Made by a program: the position numbers and the translations under genes. A DNA stretch of 64,000 bases from Candidatus Saccharibacteria bacterium (lineage in GTDB: Bacteria; Patescibacteriota; Saccharimonadia; Saccharimonadales; Saccharimonadaceae): assembly GCA_016789455.1 (NCBI GenBank), contig JAEUQU010000002.1:868001-932000 (forward strand). The letters run 5' to 3'. Positions 11,991 through 22,221 of this stretch are shown piece after piece. Positions within the stretch are counted from its first letter, which is position 1, and each line of letters begins with the position of its first letter. The notes below the pieces were generated by a model. It worked only from the letters and a program-made list of their open reading frames with translations. It had not been told where the DNA came from and ran no database searches.

Positions 11991-12001
11991 TTCTTGTCAA
12001 T

Positions 12002-12112
12002 TCGGCACCGTGCTAGTTTCCCACTCGACTGAGCAGTATAATCGCCGCTGCTAGGCTTAACTTCTGTGTTCGGCATGAGAACAGGTGTTTCCCTAGCGCC
12101 ATGGGCACCGAG
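12002..12112 (-). rRNA. rrf: 5S ribosomal RNA
   Basis: The minus strand shows the 5S hallmarks: an acceptor-type stem (TCGGTGCC with the GGCACCGTG end), GGGAAACACCTGTTC, CATGCCGAACACAGAAGTTAAG and the loop near the 3' end. The length of about 110 nt is typical. The ends are estimated to within a few nt. It lies 220 nt downstream of 23S and is probably co-transcribed with it. Confidence 0.93.
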
Positions 12113-12204
12113 TCGGGTCTATCTGGGATAGGACCAACTCGATGTCCATACGGTGTACGAAAAGATGTGAAAGAACGATCGGTATAGTGTAGATATTGTA
12201 CACT

Positions 12205-12219
12205 AACTACTAGTCGACC
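12205..12219. repeat. 23S processing stem, 3' arm
   Basis: AACTACTAGTCGACC is the perfect 15-nt reverse complement of 15575-15589. The two arms bracket 23S rRNA and would form a precursor stem typical of RNase III processing, separate from 16S. Confidence 0.8.
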
Positions 12220-12330
12220 TACCAGGTGTGTTGCTAATTGCTTAGCTCGCCTCTGGTTCCCATGACTTGCCCGTGTCATCACTGACCACAGCGTATCAAC
12301 GATACGCCTAGCGAACAAATCATGGAACAT

Positions 12331-15567
<3,237 letters not shown>

Positions 15568-15574
15568 ATGCATT

Positions 15575-15589
15575 GGTCGACTAGTAGTT
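15575..15589. repeat. 23S processing stem, 5' arm
   Basis: GGTCGACTAGTAGTT, a perfect 15-nt complement of 12205-12219. Confidence 0.8.
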
Positions 15590-15806
15590 GGTATACACTT
15601 TCATGCACAACAACTGCCGTCGTCCTTTCATCATCTAATCAAATTGTTAATCTGCAGAACTCCACCAATATCACTCGCGGCCTGTGGGCCGTGCAGCGAT
15701 TGAGTTCTCGAAACAGTAGCTCATCGGATGGTATTCGCTCGGACATACCTCGTCAGCTCCTGTTTTGAGAATTCAATTCAGAACGCAACTCTGTACAACT
15801 CAGGAT

Positions 15807-15836
15807 AGTGTAACAGTAGTTACCTCTGTTTGTAAA
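15807..15836 (-). promoter_or_regulatory. Promoter of the 23S-5S unit
   Basis: Minus strand TTTACA (15836-15831), 18-nt spacer, TACACT (15812-15807). The leader of about 230 nt contains GATTAACAATTTGA near 15635-15648, resembling the boxA motif also seen before 16S. Confidence 0.55.
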
Positions 15837-15887
15837 GGACTTTTTTCGTCGTGTCATCCTTATGCGGTTTGCTTTAGCGCAGCCGTA

Positions 15888-15930
15888 TAAAAATAACCTC
15901 CGATGCCACACCTCGTGGCGGCCAGAGGTT
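15888..15930 (-). terminator. Terminator of the 16040 pilin gene
   Basis: AACCTC/GAGGTT (15895-15900 and 15925-15930) enclosing GCCAC/GTGGC, followed on the minus strand by ATTTTTATA. It insulates the pilin transcript from the 23S promoter. The rest of 15931-16039 shows only a small hairpin, AATAGTAA/TTACTATT. Confidence 0.7.
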
Positions 15931-16039
15931 TCTCCCAAGTCGTTGATGACTTATTGGCGAAACATTCGCGTACTGAAAGTAATAGTAAGTGAAAGTTATT
16001 ACTATTGCAATAGTTTTTGAGTGCTAAGGTGTAGTAATT

Positions 16040-16612
16040 TTAGCACCCTAAGGTTATGTACGGCACATACTGGTCATGCTGGGCCACGGTAGCCCAGGTA
16101 TCCAGCTGGTGCGGTGTCGCAAAGATGCCAATCTTATCCAGGAAACCGCAGCCGCCGCCCTCGGTCTCGTTCTCGTCGATGTAATACGGGCGGCCCCAAG
16201 GGTCTTCCAGGCCGGTGAGGTTGGTGCCGGCAGCATTGCCGATCGCCTGCAGGGCTGCCTTGTAATCCGTCCAGCAGGGGTCGGTATTCTTATTAAGCGT
16301 GGCAAAGTTAGTGCCACCGACCTTATGGACGCATTCCCAGGCGGTGCCGGCATCATTGGTAATGGCCATCAGGGCGACATCACCCCGTGCGATACGGGCC
16401 GTCTTAATGGCCTTCATCAAAGCCGAAAGATCGGAGTTGATGCGGGCGGCCCTGGCCTGGTCCTGCGAACGGGCATACGAATTCATGGCCACGACCGCCA
16501 GGATGCCGATGACGACCACCACGATGAGCAGTTCGACAATGGTAAAACCCCGGGAACTCCGCCCCTTCCGGCCTGCGCCGAGCAGATTGTTAACTATTTT
16601 TGATGTTTTCAT
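16040..16612 (-). CDS. Type IV pilin / GspG-like pseudopilin
   Basis: A 190-residue pilin. The leader ends at RSSRG-FTIVELLIVVVVIGILAV, and the mature N-terminus is followed by QDQARAARINSDLSALMKAI. The globular part has CWTDYKAALQAIGNAAGTNL and the GspG-type loop DPWGRPYYIDENE, close to the 22423 and 23069 pilins (DPWG-x-PY-x-x-D-x-NE). The start is placed at MKTSKIVNNLL (16612), with TATAAT 13 nt upstream; the longer frame to 16684 would prepend a non-leader sequence. It sits between the tRNA pair and 23S, i.e. inside the ancestral rRNA operon. Confidence 0.9.
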   Translation of the reverse strand: MKTSKIVNNLLGAGRKGRSSRGFTIVELLIVVVVIGILAVVAMNSYARSQDQARAARINSDLSALMKAIKTARIARGDVALMAITNDAGTAWECVHKVGGTNFATLNKNTDPCWTDYKAALQAIGNAAGTNLTGLEDPWGRPYYIDENETEGGGCGFLDKIGIFATPHQLDTWATVAQHDQYVPYITLGC

Positions 16613-16711
16613 AGCTAATACGGCGATTATACCATAAGCATCACGATTGCCCCACGCCAGTCCGACACTATACAATGAGGGCAATACTTAGCGGGTAATT
16701 GAGGAATGTTC

Positions 16712-17059
16712 ATGACCAACGCACAAAAAACTTTGACCGCCCTGCTGCTGGCCGCAGCCTTCGGCCTGCTGCACCTACTGACCTACAGCGGCATCTGGTT
16801 CCTGGAGATGCCGTTCGCCCGGACGCGCCAGGCCTGCGCTGCCAGCGTCAGCGTCAGCCACGTCTGCAAATGCACCATCGTCGAACACAATGCCGTCGGC
16901 TTCCCTTTCCGAGCCAACTACAATGATGAATGCCAGCAGGACCATGCACCGGTCATCTGGATCATGGGCGTGAATTACGCGCTGCAGCTGTTGTTCCTGG
17001 CGGCGGTGTTCGTCATCCTGCAGGAAGTATTCTCAGGAGGGAAAAGGTCACGGCGATGA
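16712..17059 (+). CDS. Small two-helix membrane protein with Cys-rich loop
   Basis: A 115-residue unrecognised protein. TM1 is near residues 8-30 (LTALLLAAAFGLLHLLTYSG) and TM2 near 85-105 (WIMGVNYALQLLFLAAVFVI). The loop between them has four Cys (CAASVSVSHVCKC and NDEC) and is probably extracytoplasmic and disulfide-bonded. GAGG precedes ATG 16712 by 7 nt. It overlaps the pilin remnant by ATGA, so the two are coupled. It is on the opposite strand to the flanking pilins. Confidence 0.75.
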   Translation: MTNAQKTLTALLLAAAFGLLHLLTYSGIWFLEMPFARTRQACAASVSVSHVCKCTIVEHNAVGFPFRANYNDECQQDHAPVIWIMGVNYALQLLFLAAVFVILQEVFSGGKRSRR

Positions 17060-17262
17060 GCAGGGCGCCGTCCCGCGGCTTCACCATCCCGGAGGTCACG
17101 ACTGCCGGCGGCGAGTTCGCACTGCGCATGTCGCCCGAAAATTTCCGGCACGCCCACTACTGCACCTCCGGCAGCTCGTTCGTACTGGCCGGAGAGACGA
17201 CGTACTGCGGTACCGCCGGCTTTGGGAACGGGGCGGCGAAGGCGTGTTACGTGGCGAACTGA
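17056..17262 (+). pseudogene. Pilin remnant lacking the hydrophobic helix
   Basis: A 68-residue frame starting at the ATGA overlap with the preceding gene. It begins with a prepilin cleavage-like site, SRG-FTIPEV, then jumps directly to TTAGGEFALRMS and a Cys-containing pilin-like tail (CTSGSSFVLAGETTYCGTAG). The 25-residue alpha-1 core that should follow FTIPEV is missing, so assembly into a pilus seems impossible. The best reading is an internal deletion of about 40 codons; a small secreted peptide is the alternative. Confidence 0.6.
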
Positions 17263-17267
17263 TTTCT

Positions 17268-17906
17268 CTATACCTTTGCAGGATCGGGCAATGGAATCGC
17301 ACACCAGCGCGCGGCGCTTCCACCATAGGTATAGCCACTTGGGGCGTTCGTACCGAATACTCCCCAGCCGCCAGTCTCGTATATCGGCTTACCATACGCA
17401 CAAGTAGCCGGCGACTCAATCACGTACGCCAGATACCAGGCGTGCGCGGTACCGTTCAGCGTCGCATACGGAATAATCCATAGCCATACGCCCGAAGAGT
17501 TGCTGTTATCTCCCTCCAGGTACTTGGCTCCGCTGGCCGTCGCGGTCGTATCAATATAAGCCCTCATCTTGGTATTGAAGCTGGGGATGGTGCTGGCCAA
17601 CGACGTGGTGCCGTTTGCTGCTACCTGGCAATCCCCCGTGCCGTTGGAGTCGACATCGGGATAGCTGCCGAGACAGAAGTATACTTCGGTGCCGCCAGCC
17701 ATCTCTGAGGGGTATGCGTTGCCGTTGGCCACCGCATAGGCCAGCAAGGCCTTGTGCCACGCCTGGGCCAACGAGACATTCTGTTGGTTGCGGGCGTTAC
17801 GCTGAATGCCAGCGTACGAATTGAGAGCGATGGCGGCCAGAATGCCAATCACTACTATGACGATAAGAAGTTCTACGATTGTAAAACCATTGCGGCGCTT
17901 ATACAT
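17268..17906 (-). CDS. Type IV pilin-like protein
   Basis: A 212-residue pilin with a very short leader: MYKRRNG-FTIVELLIVIVVIGILAAIALNSY. The globular domain resembles that of the 58915 pilin: QNVSLAQAWHKALLAYAVANGNAYP, a Cys pair (C-LGSYPDVDSNGTGD-C) and an ending with CAIPLPDP (the other ends CRLKLPDP). ATG 17906 is 6 nt after TATAGT of an extended -10 (TGCTATAGT), suggesting a leaderless mRNA. It lies between the tRNA-Ile/Ala unit and the pilin remnant. Confidence 0.9.
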   Translation of the reverse strand: MYKRRNGFTIVELLIVIVVIGILAAIALNSYAGIQRNARNQQNVSLAQAWHKALLAYAVANGNAYPSEMAGGTEVYFCLGSYPDVDSNGTGDCQVAANGTTSLASTIPSFNTKMRAYIDTTATASGAKYLEGDNSNSSGVWLWIIPYATLNGTAHAWYLAYVIESPATCAYGKPIYETGGWGVFGTNAPSGYTYGGSAARWCAIPLPDPAKV

Positions 17907-17951
17907 AAAATTACTATAGCATAAGCATGTTGTATAAAAATCGTTGACAAA

Positions 17952-17973
17952 CAAAAAACGACCGGACGGTCGC
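17952..17973 (-). terminator. Terminator of the tRNA-Ala/tRNA-Ile unit
   Basis: CGACCG/CGGTCG (17959-17972) followed on the minus strand by TTTTTTGTTTG, 28 nt after tRNA-Ile. Confidence 0.85.
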
Positions 17974-18000
17974 CTAAGTTCCCTGTGAAGTGCTGCATGG

Positions 18001-18074
18001 TGGGGCTATCTGGACTTGAACCAGAGACCTCGTCATTATCAGTGACGCGCTCTAACCAACTGAGCTATAGCCCC
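18001..18074 (-). tRNA. tRNA-Ile (GAT)
   Basis: Cloverleaf on the minus strand: acceptor GGGGCTA/TAGCCCC with discriminator A, D arm GCTCAGTTGGTTAGAGC, anticodon loop CTGATAA, T arm GGTTCAAGTCC. CCA is not encoded. Confidence 0.97.
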
Positions 18075-18096
18075 ATACGTACAGGCTCACATATGG

Positions 18097-18170
18097 TGGA
18101 GCGTCAGGGACTCGAACCCTGGACCCCCTGCTTGCAAAGCAGGTGCTCTAGCCAACTGAGCTAACGCCCC
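18097..18170 (-). tRNA. tRNA-Ala (TGC)
   Basis: Cloverleaf on the minus strand: acceptor GGGGCGT with ACGCTCC (one wobble), D arm GCTCAGTTGGCTAGAGC, anticodon loop TTTGCAA, T arm GGGTTCGAGTCCC. CCA is not encoded. Ala precedes Ile in transcription order. Confidence 0.97.
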
Positions 18171-18219
18171 ATGATCGTATGGAATGGCTATCAAAATGTC
18201 TCACGACAAGTTCCACGTT

Positions 18220-18248
18220 ATTGTATAGAACTTCATCTGTTTTTGCAA
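18220..18248 (-). promoter_or_regulatory. Promoter of the tRNA-Ala/tRNA-Ile unit
   Basis: Minus strand TTGCAA (18248-18243), 17-nt spacer, TACAAT (18225-18220), about 40 nt before tRNA-Ala. Confidence 0.65.
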
Positions 18249-18296
18249 TGCTGTCCGCCGCTCTGCGCGTCGCAACGATAGTCTGAAAATGGAACA

Positions 18297-18368
18297 CCGC
18301 TGGGCGGAGGACGAGGGCCCGAAGGGCCGACGGTCAGTGACCGTACACTCAATCCCCCGCCGCAGCGG
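18297..18368 (-). other. Type-1 branched 3' element, copy 1
   Basis: Begins 5 nt after the stop of the 18373 gene. Outer helix CCGCTG (18297-18302)/CAGCGG (18363-18368) and GCGG (18304-18307)/CCGC (18357-18360); two inner hairpins GGCCC-GAA-GGGCC (18316-18328) and ACGGTC-AGT-GACCGT (18330-18344). Same architecture as 18875-18948 and 19545-19618, with compensatory base changes between copies. Confidence 0.75.
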
Positions 18369-18372
18369 TTTG

Positions 18373-18684
18373 TCACACGTGTCCGGCGACCCGTTCACTC
18401 CTGTCGGCGGTCTTCTGGTTGGGGACGAGGACCGCCAGCATCGCCTCCGTCGTGACCGCCACCGCCAGCATGGCGGCGATGATCCACGGAGCGCCGACCG
18501 ACAGCGGCAGCACCAGCAGTGGCGAGCAGCTGAGGATCGGCAGGACGAAGATGTGCAGGACCACCTCCTGGCTGGTGAAGATGGTCGGCTTCCAGCCCCC
18601 ATCCGTCCAGCTGATCTTGACCAGCGCGAGGAGCGCGGGCAGGAGCAGGACGATGAGGGCGTAGGGGAACAGCTCGGCATCCAT
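18373..18684 (-). CDS. Orphan cassette-type membrane protein, 103 aa
   Basis: Unrecognised protein with three hydrophobic segments: residues about 5-25 (FPYALIVLLLPALLALVKIS), about 38-60 (EVVLHIFVLPILSCSPLLVL) and about 66-88 (PWIIAAMLAVAVTTEAMLAV). The C-terminus is short and polar. ATG 18684 has AAAGGA about 10 nt upstream. Its promoter is at 18765-18793, giving a leader of about 75 nt. A branched 3' element follows the stop. It sits between 16S and tRNA-Ala, on the rRNA strand. Function unknown. Confidence 0.75.
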   Translation of the reverse strand: MDAELFPYALIVLLLPALLALVKISWTDGGWKPTIFTSQEVVLHIFVLPILSCSPLLVLPLSVGAPWIIAAMLAVAVTTEAMLAVLVPNQKTADRSERVAGHV

Positions 18685-18764
18685 CAGGACAGTCCTTTCG
18701 CTTGGGAAACACGGTGAGGTGCAGGCCGCACAACGGGCATACTGCCATAGCGGGCCTATATATA

Positions 18765-18793
18765 ATTATAGCATAGTGCTTGCGTTTAGTCAA
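18765..18793 (-). promoter_or_regulatory. Cassette promoter (18373 gene)
   Basis: Minus strand TTGACT (18793-18788), 17-nt spacer, TATAAT (18770-18765). From the -35 through CAAGCA and the TATGCTATAATTA stretch it is nearly identical to the promoter at 20086-20114. Confidence 0.85.
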
Positions 18794-18874
18794 TGAATTA
18801 CTGCTACCCAACAGGGGTACGAACGTTTCGTCCTACTGGACTCATCAGCATAACCTGCGAGTTATGGACGTTCG

Positions 18875-18948
18875 CCGCTGGGCGGAGGTGAGGAGCCGAC
18901 GGCTCTCACGCGGTCGATGACCGCGCACTCGATCCTCCGCTCCAGCGG
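18875..18948 (-). other. Type-1 branched 3' element, copy 2
   Basis: Lies 34 nt after the stop of the 18982 gene. Outer helix CCGCTG (18875-18880)/CAGCGG (18943-18948) plus GCGGAGG/CCTCCGC; inner hairpins GAGCC-GAC-GGCTC (18893-18905) and GCGGTC-GAT-GACCGC (18910-18924). Relative to copy 1 the first inner helix has changed on both sides. Confidence 0.75.
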
Positions 18949-18981
18949 TGCGCATACCAGAGGGGTGTGCGGCTGCAGGGG

Positions 18982-19410
18982 TTACTGGTTTTCACCACTT
19001 GAGCGTGTGAGCCCCAGGATGACCTGCGCCTTGTGCTGGATGGCACATGAGGCGCAGAGGCCCGGCATGCCCGGCTTGGTGAACCCCTCCTGCACGCAGG
19101 CGAGGAAGGTGTCCCAGTGGATTACCAGGTGCAGCAGGATGCCGAGCGGCACCAGCGGCACGGCCAACAGCAGGGACGCGGCGCCGGGCAGGAACAGCCC
19201 GAAACCCACTCCCAGCACCATGCCCAAGCCGATCATCGACCAGCTGAGCAGCCGGATGATGGACTGCCCCATGGTGAGGTGCCGCAGCCCCAGCCAGCGG
19301 GTGCGGCGGGCCTGTCGGACGGACGACAGGGCGTCGAGCGTCTCGCGGTCGCTGGGGTGCATGTTGGTGTTGATGGGCAGACCGTCGGTGACGATGGACG
19401 GAACGGACAT
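18982..19410 (-). CDS. Orphan cassette-type membrane protein with CXXC tail, 142 aa
   Basis: Unrecognised. A hydrophilic N-terminus (about 50 residues, Arg-rich near RQARRTRWLGLRH) is followed by two membrane helices (about 53-77 and about 80-97, including VPLVPLGILLHLVIHW). The C-terminal tail has CASCAIQHKAQVILGLTRS. That C-x-x-C-x-x-Q-x-x-AQ-x-x-LGL motif recurs in the next gene (19625-19990: CEHCIQQDDAQIALGLAPS), so the two are paralogs with a possible metal- or thiol-active cytoplasmic tail. ATG 19410 follows AGGAG by 5 nt. It has its own promoter at 19477-19505 and a branched 3' element. Confidence 0.75.
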   Translation of the reverse strand: MSVPSIVTDGLPINTNMHPSDRETLDALSSVRQARRTRWLGLRHLTMGQSIIRLLSWSMIGLGMVLGVGFGLFLPGAASLLLAVPLVPLGILLHLVIHWDTFLACVQEGFTKPGMPGLCASCAIQHKAQVILGLTRSSGENQ

Positions 19411-19476
19411 GATCACTCCTGAAACTCGGAACCTATCGGGTGCGGACAGCGGAAACTGAAGGCTGTCACTACACTT

Positions 19477-19505
19477 ATTATATAACTTTGATTATGTTTA
19501 GTCAA
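19477..19505 (-). promoter_or_regulatory. Cassette promoter (18982 gene)
   Basis: Minus strand TTGACT (19505-19500), 17-nt spacer, TATAAT (19482-19477); shares the TTGACTAAAC start with the two neighbouring cassette promoters. Confidence 0.85.
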
Positions 19506-19544
19506 TAGTTACGTGCGGCCGTTGGTGCTTAGAAAAAACGAAAA

Positions 19545-19618
19545 CCGCCGGGCGGAGGATGAGGGCCTTTGGAAGGCCGACGGTCAGTGACCGTACACTC
19601 AATCCCCCGCCGCAGCGG
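19545..19618 (-). other. Type-1 branched 3' element, copy 3
   Basis: Begins 7 nt after the stop of the 19625 gene. Inner hairpins GGCCTT-TGG-AAGGCC (19564-19578) and ACGGTC-AGT-GACCGT (19580-19594). The outer helix uses CCGCCG and GGCGGAGG with CCCCGC and CAGCGG (one mismatch). Only this copy is followed by a T-rich tract (TTTTCGTTTTTTC on the minus strand), so it can double as a terminator. Confidence 0.75.
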
Positions 19619-19624
19619 TGTGGG

Positions 19625-19990
19625 TCAGACGACCCGACGCACCCGAGCACGCGGCAGCACGGAGGGCGCGAGGCCCAGCGCGATCTGCGCGTCGTCCTGC
19701 TGGATGCAGTGTTCGCACTGTTCACTCCGGTACTCTCGCTCACACGTGAGGCGCGAGTCACACCGGCGGACCAGCCACAGCCCGAAGGCCGGGACCAGCA
19801 GCCAGGCGTAGCTGAGTGAGTCCAGCAGCGGGAGCAGGATGCCGATGGCACCCAGCACCAGCGCGATGCCCAGGCTGATGGCCTGGCCGCCGCTGTTGTG
19901 CCGCACGCCGCCCACCAGACGGCGCAGCGCGGTGGCCGTCGAGAGCTGCTCGGGGGCCTGGGCGTAGAAACCGTTGGTGGTGACGGACAT
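19625..19990 (-). CDS. Orphan cassette-type membrane protein with CXXC tail, 121 aa
   Basis: Paralog of the 18982 gene. Two hydrophobic helices at residues about 37-57 (AISLGIALVLGAIGILLPLL) and about 59-75 (YAWLLVPAFGLWLV) are followed by an Arg/Cys-rich tail (RRCDSRLTCEREYRSEQCEHC). The tail ends with the shared QQDDAQIALGL motif and a basic C-terminus. Four Cys in the tail (as C-x6-C and C-x-x-C) could bind a metal. It has the same unit layout: promoter 20086-20114, leader of about 90 nt, branched 3' element. Confidence 0.75.
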   Translation of the reverse strand: MSVTTNGFYAQAPEQLSTATALRRLVGGVRHNSGGQAISLGIALVLGAIGILLPLLDSLSYAWLLVPAFGLWLVRRCDSRLTCEREYRSEQCEHCIQQDDAQIALGLAPSVLPRARVRRVV

Positions 19991-20085
19991 GGGATGCTCC
20001 TTGGGTGAAGCAGGGCGAGCCGGGTGCTCTGCCCTGTTGGTGTGCGGGTGTGCGCGGCAACAATCGTTATGTTGTCGTACTTTTA

Positions 20086-20114
20086 ATTATAGCATAATGC
20101 TTGTGTTTAGTCAA
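20086..20114 (-). promoter_or_regulatory. Cassette promoter (19625 gene)
   Basis: Minus strand TTGACT (20114-20109), 17-nt spacer, TATAAT (20091-20086). Confidence 0.85.
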
Positions 20115-20189
20115 TGGATGTGTTCGATCTGACCCCTGTTGCTTCTCGGTATTGCCCCGCTAGAATTGCAGCGTAAGCGGTTTGGCTTT

Positions 20190-20402
20190 ATGCTAGTGCT
20201 TATGTACTTCATAGAAACGCTTGTGGGGCTCGTGGCATGTGTGCTGCTGTTCATTTATGCAGAGGAAGTGGCCAGGCTTGTGGACGATGTGATTGGAACT
20301 TCGTTCGTGCGGGATGCGAATAATCCGTGGACGTATCGGATTGTGGCGGTGCTTGGTGGGCTGTATGCGGTGTATATGCTAGTCAGCATCATCATATCGT
20401 AG
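20190..20402 (+). CDS. Small membrane protein
   Basis: A 70-residue frame with two hydrophobic helices (LVLMYFIETLVGLVACVLLF, and RIVAVLGGLYAVYMLVSIII at the C-terminus) separated by a short acidic loop (EEVARLVDDVIG). A candidate promoter, TTGCTT-16-TAGAAT (20139-20166), would start transcription near 20173, so ATG 20190 is preferred over a TTG at 20139. No ribosome binding site is seen. It is convergent with the 16S terminator. No family recognised. Confidence 0.55.
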   Translation: MLVLMYFIETLVGLVACVLLFIYAEEVARLVDDVIGTSFVRDANNPWTYRIVAVLGGLYAVYMLVSIIIS

Positions 20403-20446
20403 CGATAAGCAGGCCAGCTTTTGTGAAAAATAAGTGTGTCGTAAAA

Positions 20447-20480
20447 CAAAAAACACCTCTCATAACGAAAGGTGTTTTTT
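20447..20480 (-). terminator. Terminator of the 16S unit
   Basis: AAAAAACACCT/AGGTGTTTTTT, perfect arms with T-runs on both strands; it can end both 16S and the 20190 gene. Confidence 0.85.
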
Positions 20481-20499
20481 GGTCTGTGTATTCACAACT

Positions 20500-20515
20500 G
20501 TGCAGTGCAGGTCAA
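20500..20515. repeat. 16S processing stem, 3' arm
   Basis: GTGCAGTGCAGGTCAA pairs with 22222-22237 (one mismatch), enclosing 16S rRNA as an RNase III-type precursor stem. Confidence 0.75.
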
Positions 20516-20640
20516 TCAATATCGGGTTTTGAATCTCGTCCTACCTCTTACGAGGCTAATGTTATTTTGTAGATCCGGCAAAACAACAGGACCGACCTCG
20601 CTTCATAGATTGATTGCTCGAATCTATGGCGTAACTCCCT

Positions 20641-22128
<1,488 letters not shown>

Positions 22129-22221
22129 AAGAATTGTCTTACCTCACTGGCGTGAGATAAGAGAACTACCCTGATTGCGAATATATTCTATGAATATAAT
22201 TCAGGGATTTAATTGACATTG

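What the first reader, a model, noticed from the sequence alone, without database searches (positions are those of the whole stretch)
18297..19618. Three covarying multibranched RNA elements at the 3' ends of orphan genes
Elements at 18297-18368, 18875-18948 and 19545-19618 share one fold: an outer helix of CCGCTG-type plus GCGGAGG-type sequence, and two inner hairpins. The first inner hairpin is GGCCC/GGGCC, GAGCC/GGCTC and GGCCTT/AAGGCC in the three copies; the second is ACGGTC/GACCGT or GCGGTC/GACCGC. Both arms change together, which points to selection on structure. Each lies 5-34 nt after a stop codon. Only copy 3 has a T-run, so plain termination does not explain all three. They might stabilise mRNA, bind a protein, or be recombination sites that move the genes.
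Basis: partly seen in the sequence, partly recalled or inferred. Interest (0 to 1): 0.78.

Follow-up and report, generated by a model that had tools for sequence, protein, structure and literature searches.

The report
Ribozyme-ended orphan mRNAs in Saccharibacteria
Three look-alike folded RNA elements cap the 3' ends of three orphan genes in a tiny parasitic bacterium; one of them sits flush against a self-cutting hammerhead ribozyme, and about 100 similar ribozymes lie at the 3' ends of mostly unrelated genes across this bacterial group, often next to sequences that can pair with the start of the same message.

Summary
The three elements are real and the coordinates are right. The RNA strand is the minus strand: 72-74 nt three-way junctions, MFE -47.5 to -49.9 kcal/mol, z about -5 to -6, each 4-33 nt after the stop of a small orphan gene that has its own near-consensus promoter.

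It is predicted to cut 8 nt after the element. Copy 3 is the same element plus a U-tract; copy 1 has only a degenerate U-tract.

The element itself is private to this genome. The architecture is not. Type III hammerheads occur in 63 of 393 genomes of the class, and 100 of 101 fetched loci have a sense ORF ending shortly upstream. The segment before the ribozyme pairs with the 5' leader (32 of 97 loci) or with the 3' UTR (59 of 93), with compensatory changes. Such RNA shells can be conserved around unrelated ORFs.

Best reading: 3'-end modules that form and protect mRNA ends. The recombination idea is not supported. Cleavage and stability are inferred, not shown.

The parts
20086..20114 (-). 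promoter of ORF3, TTGACT-N17-TATAAT, 11 of 12 consensus
19625..19990 (-). ORF3, 121 aa, orphan protein (hydrophobic by inspection), Cys-rich tail; 37% identical to ORF2 over the alignment
19545..19618 (-). element copy 3, three-way junction in the 3' UTR
19533..19544 (-). U-tract (UUUUCGUUUUUU) directly after copy 3: element plus U-tract looks like an intrinsic terminator
   Evidence: sequence; fold; not called by the simple terminator scan, whose loop limit is 8 nt
19477..19505 (-). promoter of ORF2, TTGACT-N17-TATAAT, 11 of 12
18982..19416 (-). ORF2, 144 aa, orphan protein (hydrophobic by inspection)
18875..18948 (-). element copy 2, three-way junction in the 3' UTR, closed within the 3' UTR
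18820..18874 (-). type III hammerhead ribozyme, 0 nt after element copy 2; core CUGAUGA 18848-18842, GAAA 18829-18826; predicted cut between 18867 and 18866 (GUC^C)
18765..18793 (-). promoter of ORF1, TTGACT-N17-TATAAT, 11 of 12; 26 nt after the end of the hammerhead
18373..18684 (-). ORF1, 103 aa, orphan protein (hydrophobic by inspection), no similarity to ORF2/ORF3 beyond chance
18297..18368 (-). element copy 1, three-way junction in the 3' UTR
18284..18296 (-). degenerate U-tract after copy 1 (UGUUCCAUUUUCA), in register with the U-tract after copy 3
   Evidence: sequence, (family D5)

Best explanation
The elements are 3'-end modules of three monocistronic orphan mRNAs transcribed from the minus strand. 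Each folds into a very stable three-way junction just after the stop codon, which should block 3'-to-5' exonucleases and so fix and protect the mRNA 3' end. The step that frees the 3' end differs by copy. In copy 2 a type III hammerhead, stacked directly on the closing helix, cuts the nascent RNA 8 nt downstream. In copy 3 the same element with a U-tract acts as an intrinsic terminator. In copy 1 only a degenerate U-tract is left. This is the local case of a widespread Saccharibacterial design: a single-gene mRNA whose 3' trailer ends in a hammerhead, with a closing helix just before the ribozyme that pairs either inside the 3' UTR (as here) or with the 5' leader of the same mRNA. Shown from sequence: the elements, the ribozyme's core and stems, gene order, promoters, and the recurrence and covariation in relatives. 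Inferred: cleavage in the cell, exonuclease protection, and any effect on expression.
For: Fold and z-scores on the gene strand. Hammerhead at E 2e-8 flush with copy 2, and element plus ribozyme form side by side in one MFE structure. Three promoters at 11 of 12 consensus, one per gene. Related loci: RF00008 matches in 29 of 101 relatives and 63 of 393 class genomes; a sense ORF stops within 450 nt upstream in 100 of 101, median about 100 nt; the upstream longest open frame is sense in 77 of 100, against 53 of 99 downstream, as expected for a 3' end. The segment before the ribozyme has a local 3'-UTR partner in 59 of 93 loci and a 5'-leader partner in 32 of 97, against 4-10 of 97 for control segments. 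The leader-trailer helix has 5 of 13 pairs with compensatory change, 97.6% of cells paired, 0 of 500 shuffles as good on the paired-cell and covariation scores. The local helix has 9 of 26 such pairs, 0 of 500. A -10-like box lies upstream of the leader strand in 20 of 26, background 14%, so that strand is probably transcribed. The own genome holds a second hammerhead after another orphan gene.
Against: No expression or cleavage data. The copy 2 hammerhead scores 46.2 bits, just under Rfam's cut-off of 48.5. Two of the three copies have no ribozyme. The element occurs in no other genome searched, so its covariation rests on three copies, two of them near-identical. The window's own copy 2 has no significant 5'-leader partner. 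In the best-studied related family the local helix would compete with ribozyme stem III, so there the ribozyme may be off for part of the time.
Confidence: 0.72

Rival explanations
1. The elements are simply bulky intrinsic terminators; the hammerhead next to copy 2 is an unrelated neighbour.
For: Copy 3 is a GC-rich structure followed by U4CGU6, and copy 1 has a degenerate U-tract in register.
Against: Copy 2 has no U-tract but a complete hammerhead at 0 nt, and hammerheads directly follow closing helices at many related loci. The branched, covarying inner hairpins are not needed for a terminator.
Confidence: 0.2
2. The elements are recombination sites (attC-like or transposon-end-like) that move the gene cassettes.
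For: Cassette-like layout of promoter, ORF and element. ORF1 is unrelated to ORF2/3 while elements and promoters are alike. In relatives, shells are shared by unrelated ORFs.
Against: No integron-type integrase above the cut-off. No copies elsewhere in the genome or in relatives. G.U pairs are preferred on the transcribed strand, and a functional RNA, the hammerhead, is fused to one copy.
Confidence: 0.07
3. The elements bind a protein or act as regulatory RNAs or riboswitch-like sensors controlling the ribozyme or translation.
For: Multibranched, loop-conserved structure; two hairpin loops of fixed size; in relatives the trailer can adopt two exclusive folds, one of which takes up the ribozyme's stem III strand.
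Against: No conserved unpaired aptamer-like core is seen in three copies, and in the window the closing helix stops exactly at the ribozyme boundary, so no gating is visible.
Confidence: 0.15
4. Tandem hammerheads release unit-length RNAs that circularise, as in viroid-like RNAs or retrozymes.
For: Arrays with one hammerhead per cassette at about 640-nt spacing in L018 and a similar array in L146.
Against: Most loci are single genes with their own promoter, so the 5' end would carry a triphosphate. The window has one hammerhead among three cassettes.
Confidence: 0.05

Closest known systems
Type III hammerhead ribozyme (Rfam RF00008)
   Same: Core CUGAUGA...GAAA, three stems, open at stem III, GUC cleavage triplet; one lies directly after element copy 2
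   Different: Used after a single chromosomal orphan gene, flush with a structured 3'-UTR element; slightly below Rfam's curated score
Bacterial hammerheads that flank genes in prophages (Perreault et al. 2011, PMC3088659)
   Same: Ribozymes close to individual genes of no fixed identity, proposed to cut long transcripts into gene-length mRNAs
   Different: The loci read here lie next to ordinary chromosomal genes (rRNA and tRNA genes in the window; rpiB-like and GAPDH-like genes in L020), each gene seems to have its own promoter, and a covarying closing helix precedes the ribozyme; that paper's main text does not mention TM7
5'-UTR/3'-UTR pairing of icaR mRNA in Staphylococcus aureus (PMC3868564)
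   Same: The two ends of one mRNA pair; in some relatives the paired 5' strand overlaps the Shine-Dalgarno sequence
   Different: No ribozyme in icaR; here the 3' strand sits immediately before a hammerhead. Window copy 2 does not show such pairing
Hammerhead in the 3' UTR of rodent Clec2 genes (from general knowledge, not read here)
   Same: Hammerhead between stop codon and mRNA 3' end
   Different: Eukaryotic, discontinuous ribozyme; no closing helix with the 5' leader is known to me
Intrinsic (Rho-independent) terminator
   Same: Copy 3: GC-rich structure plus U-tract
   Different: Branched, and two of three copies lack a proper U-tract

Membership tests
Type III hammerhead ribozyme (18820-18874) | Invariant core CUGANGA and GAAA plus A15.1-U16.1 | tested here: met
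   CUGAUGA 18848-18842, GAAA 18829-18826, U at 18868; and sequence
Type III hammerhead ribozyme (18820-18874) | Three stems with stem III open to the flanking RNA | tested here: met
   CGAACGU/ACGUUCG, CAUAAC/GUUAUG, GUCC/GGAC; MFE forms all three
Type III hammerhead ribozyme (18820-18874) | NUH cleavage triplet | tested here: met
   GUC at 18869-18867
Type III hammerhead ribozyme (18820-18874) | Score above Rfam's curated cut-off (48.5 bits) | tested here: inconclusive
   46.2 bits, E 2e-8, so just below the cut-off; most related hammerheads also fall below it
Type III hammerhead ribozyme (18820-18874) | Self-cleavage | not testable with these tools
   needs an in vitro cleavage assay
Intrinsic terminator (all three elements) | GC-rich hairpin followed at once by a U-tract | tested here: inconclusive
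   met in copy 3 (UUUUCGUUUUUU), degenerate in copy 1, absent in copy 2
Integron cassette attC site | Integron integrase in the genome | tested here: not met
   best match 89 bits against a cut-off of 265; all 14 control genomes also match
Integron cassette attC site | R'/R'' boxes RYYYAAC / GTTRRRY at the ends | tested here: not met
   element ends are CCGCTG (CCGCCG in copy 3) ... CAGCGG on the plus strand (by inspection)
REP/MITE-type dispersed repeat | Many copies around the genome | tested here: not met
   three copies, all within 1.3 kb
icaR-type 5'-3' UTR pairing (window copy 2) | 3'-UTR segment complementary to the 5' leader beyond chance | tested here: not met
   best helix no better than mispaired controls for G000:C2:886820; met in 32 of 97 loci of the set

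The most novel reading that the evidence does not exclude
Saccharibacteria use self-closing, hammerhead-ended RNA shells as a modular expression system. A conserved 5' leader and 3' trailer plus ribozyme wrap many unrelated orphan ORFs. In one family the trailer strand before the ribozyme can pair either with the leader or with a local strand that reaches into ribozyme stem III up to the cut site, so that cleavage may be gated by the state of the mRNA's own 5' end. The window's three elements are the simple, ungated branch of this system.
Probability: 0.35. Interest if true: 0.9.

Novelty: new variant of a known kind. Interest (0 to 1): 0.74.

Why it matters
Bacterial hammerheads are known, but what they do in chromosomes is an open question. 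Here they sit in one repeated position, right after single orphan genes, next to helices that covary across genera, in a group in which some members can be grown and modified (PMC10633639, title and abstract only). That makes the question directly testable: does a ribozyme, not a terminator, make mRNA 3' ends in these bacteria, and does pairing with the 5' leader control it? Conserved RNA shells around unrelated ORFs also raise the question of how ORFs are exchanged between shells.

Tried and rejected
Plus-strand reading of the elements: rejected; genes and better folds are on the minus strand. Element in other genomes: covariance model R1 found none in 100 relatives or in 30 with permissive filters; DNA patterns found none in viral contigs or 84,980 species genomes (the own genome may be left out there). 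Protein families for ORF1-3: nothing above cut-off in Pfam, NCBIfam or PHROGs; homologs only in the own genome (other hits at E about 1e-3 look like chance membrane-protein similarity). Whole-duplex energies between 5' and 3' regions did not separate real from mispaired loci; ungapped helices against shuffles and control segments did. Alignment A6 contained one row of which I had typed part without reading it from a locus; I discarded it and rebuilt the alignment from locus references as A7, which is the one used. Thermodynamics of two bistable examples: the local helix is far more stable than the free-ribozyme fold plus leader duplex, so a simple 'leader switches the ribozyme on at equilibrium' model is not supported; only a kinetic or co-transcriptional version remains. 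Empty-site test at the 16S-tRNA spacer: the loci fetched were too short to decide. Literature: no paper in the held library has both 'hammerhead ribozyme' and 'Saccharibacteria', and searches with Patescibacteria terms listed none; preprints and most subscription papers are not held.

Full report
OBSERVATION. The three elements at 18297-18368, 18875-18948 and 19545-19618 exist as described. On that strand each folds into a three-way junction: a 14-pair outer helix (one bulge), a 3-pair inner helix and two hairpins with 3-nt loops, at -48.6, -49.9 and -47.5 kcal/mol (z -5.1, -5.9, -5.6). The plus strand folds less well in each copy. Copies 1 and 3 are recent duplicates (98% over 48 nt); copy 2 is diverged (69%). 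Covariation exists but is limited by three copies: 3 pairs with both sides changed in the MAFFT columns, a few more when the second hairpin is matched helix to helix.

SURROUNDINGS. The three genes (ORF1 103 aa, ORF2 144 aa, ORF3 121 aa) are orphans. ORF2 and ORF3 are related, ORF1 is not; none has a family hit above cut-off and none has a convincing homolog in 245 genomes of the class (ORF2/3) or elsewhere in the own genome (ORF1). Each has its own promoter, TTGACT-N17-TATAAT, 11 of 12 consensus. The cassettes lie between the 16S gene, which has a hairpin with a T-rich stem at 20447-20481 after it, and tRNA-Ala/tRNA-Ile, in an rRNA region that is not one compact operon.

WHAT WAS MISSED. Directly after copy 2, with no gap, is a complete type III hammerhead ribozyme (18820-18874, minus; 46.2 bits, E 2e-8). 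Stem III is CGAACGU/ACGUUCG, stem I CAUAAC/GUUAUG, stem II GUCC/GGAC; the core is CUGAUGA and GAAA; the cut is predicted after C18867, 8 nt downstream of the element. Element and ribozyme form side by side in the MFE structure. Copy 3 is instead followed by UUUUCGUUUUUU. Copy 1 is followed by UGUUCCAUUUUCA, which is in register with it but degenerate. The same element thus carries three different downstream ends.

RELATED LOCI. The element model finds only the three window copies, so this exact element is private to the genome. The hammerhead is not. RF00008 matches at E<=1e-4 occur in 63 of 393 genomes of the class and 21 of 333 drawn from the phylum, and in 0 of 14 control genomes. I fetched 101 loci; 100 have a sense ORF of at least 45 aa ending within 450 nt upstream, median about 100 nt. 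The longest open frame is sense upstream in 77 of 100, but downstream orientation is random (53 of 99). That is the signature of a 3'-UTR element. Arrays exist: four cassettes at about 640 nt spacing in L018 and three in L146, a named Candidatus Saccharibacteria contig. The own genome has a second hammerhead after another orphan gene (L020).

CLOSING HELICES. The 18 nt before the ribozyme plus its first 4 nt were compared with the 5' region of the same gene and with the 3' UTR. A 5'-leader partner at p<=0.05 (composition shuffles) is found in 32 of 97 loci, against 4-10 of 97 for four control segments; a local 3'-UTR partner in 59 of 93; either in 71; both in 20. In one leader family (consensus TGACAAGCAGACA / TGTCTGCTTGTCA) 13 distinct leader/trailer pairs give 97.6% paired cells, 5 of 13 pairs with compensatory change, and 0 of 500 shuffles as good for the paired-cell and covariation scores. 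The leader strand is probably transcribed: a -10-like box lies upstream in 20 of 26 strong cases, background 14%. The same trailer strand also belongs to a local helix of up to 26 pairs, 9 of them with compensatory change, that runs into ribozyme stem III (10 loci reach at least 4 nt into it). The two pairings exclude each other. By energy the local helix wins, so gating by the leader would have to be kinetic. Window copy 2 belongs to the simpler type: the local helix stops exactly where the ribozyme starts and there is no significant leader partner.

SHELLS AND ORFS. Of 36 pairs of loci with similar 3' shells, only 5 have similar proteins, and 80 of 101 loci encode a protein with no relative in the set. 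The window shows the same in small: elements and promoters alike, ORF1 unrelated to ORF2/3. The exact trailer-ribozyme sequence of the largest shell family was found in 7 stretches of named genomes, all Candidatus Saccharibacteria/Saccharimonadia, and in one viral contig.

MECHANISM. Most likely the elements fix and protect mRNA 3' ends: a stable closed structure next to the 3' end, with the end made by ribozyme cleavage (copy 2), U-tract termination (copy 3) or weak termination and trimming (copy 1). Shown: sequences, folds, positions, recurrence, covariation. Inferred: cleavage in cells, exonuclease blocking, effect on expression.

KNOWN OR NEW. Hammerheads near individual genes in prophages are known (PMC3088659), and 5'-3' UTR pairing is known for icaR (PMC3868564). 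I found no report of hammerhead 3' ends in Saccharibacteria, of closing helices before hammerheads, or of such shells around unrelated ORFs, within a library that lacks most subscription papers and preprints. I class it as a new variant of a known kind.

Noticed in passing
L020 8988-9051 (own genome, contig C2:368987-369050, minus): Second type III hammerhead of the genome, after an orphan gene downstream of GAPDH- and rpiB-like genes; the leader segments CGTCAGC and CACGATG are complementary to trailer segments around a strong hairpin, and further orphan ORFs follow on the same strand.
   Followed up: partly
L018 5951-7889 (minus): Array of four promoter-ORF-hairpin-hammerhead cassettes at about 640 nt spacing; 5' leaders (GAGCAC, AGGAGTG with the Shine-Dalgarno) match the trailers (CACTCCT...GTGCTC); the ORFs are strongly diverged.
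   Followed up: partly
L021 13065-13211, L069, L084, L088, L066, L105, L089, L111, L082 and others: Shell family with leader TGACAAGCAGACA: the trailer has two mutually exclusive conserved pairings, one of which takes up the hammerhead's stem III strand up to the cut site; the ORFs are mostly unrelated across genera.
   Followed up: partly
101 hammerhead loci: ORFs before the hammerheads are GC-rich (median 0.58, GC3 often 0.7-0.95) compared with downstream flanks (0.50), which may mean high expression or foreign origin.
   Followed up: no
window 12000-22130: Split rRNA region: the 16S gene and tRNA-Ala/tRNA-Ile are separated by the three cassettes, and the tRNAs and the 23S gene by pilin-like prepilin genes (N-terminal GFTIVELLIV).
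   Followed up: no
L021 11683-11737 (+) and the G250:C4:4219 locus: Hammerhead after a large glycosyltransferase-like ORF in two genomes with similar trailers, so the design is not limited to tiny ORFs.
   Followed up: no
L148 (viral contig IMGVR_UViG_3300010283_000118), 177-195: The trailer-hammerhead junction sequence of the shell family also occurs in one contig catalogued as viral.
   Followed up: no
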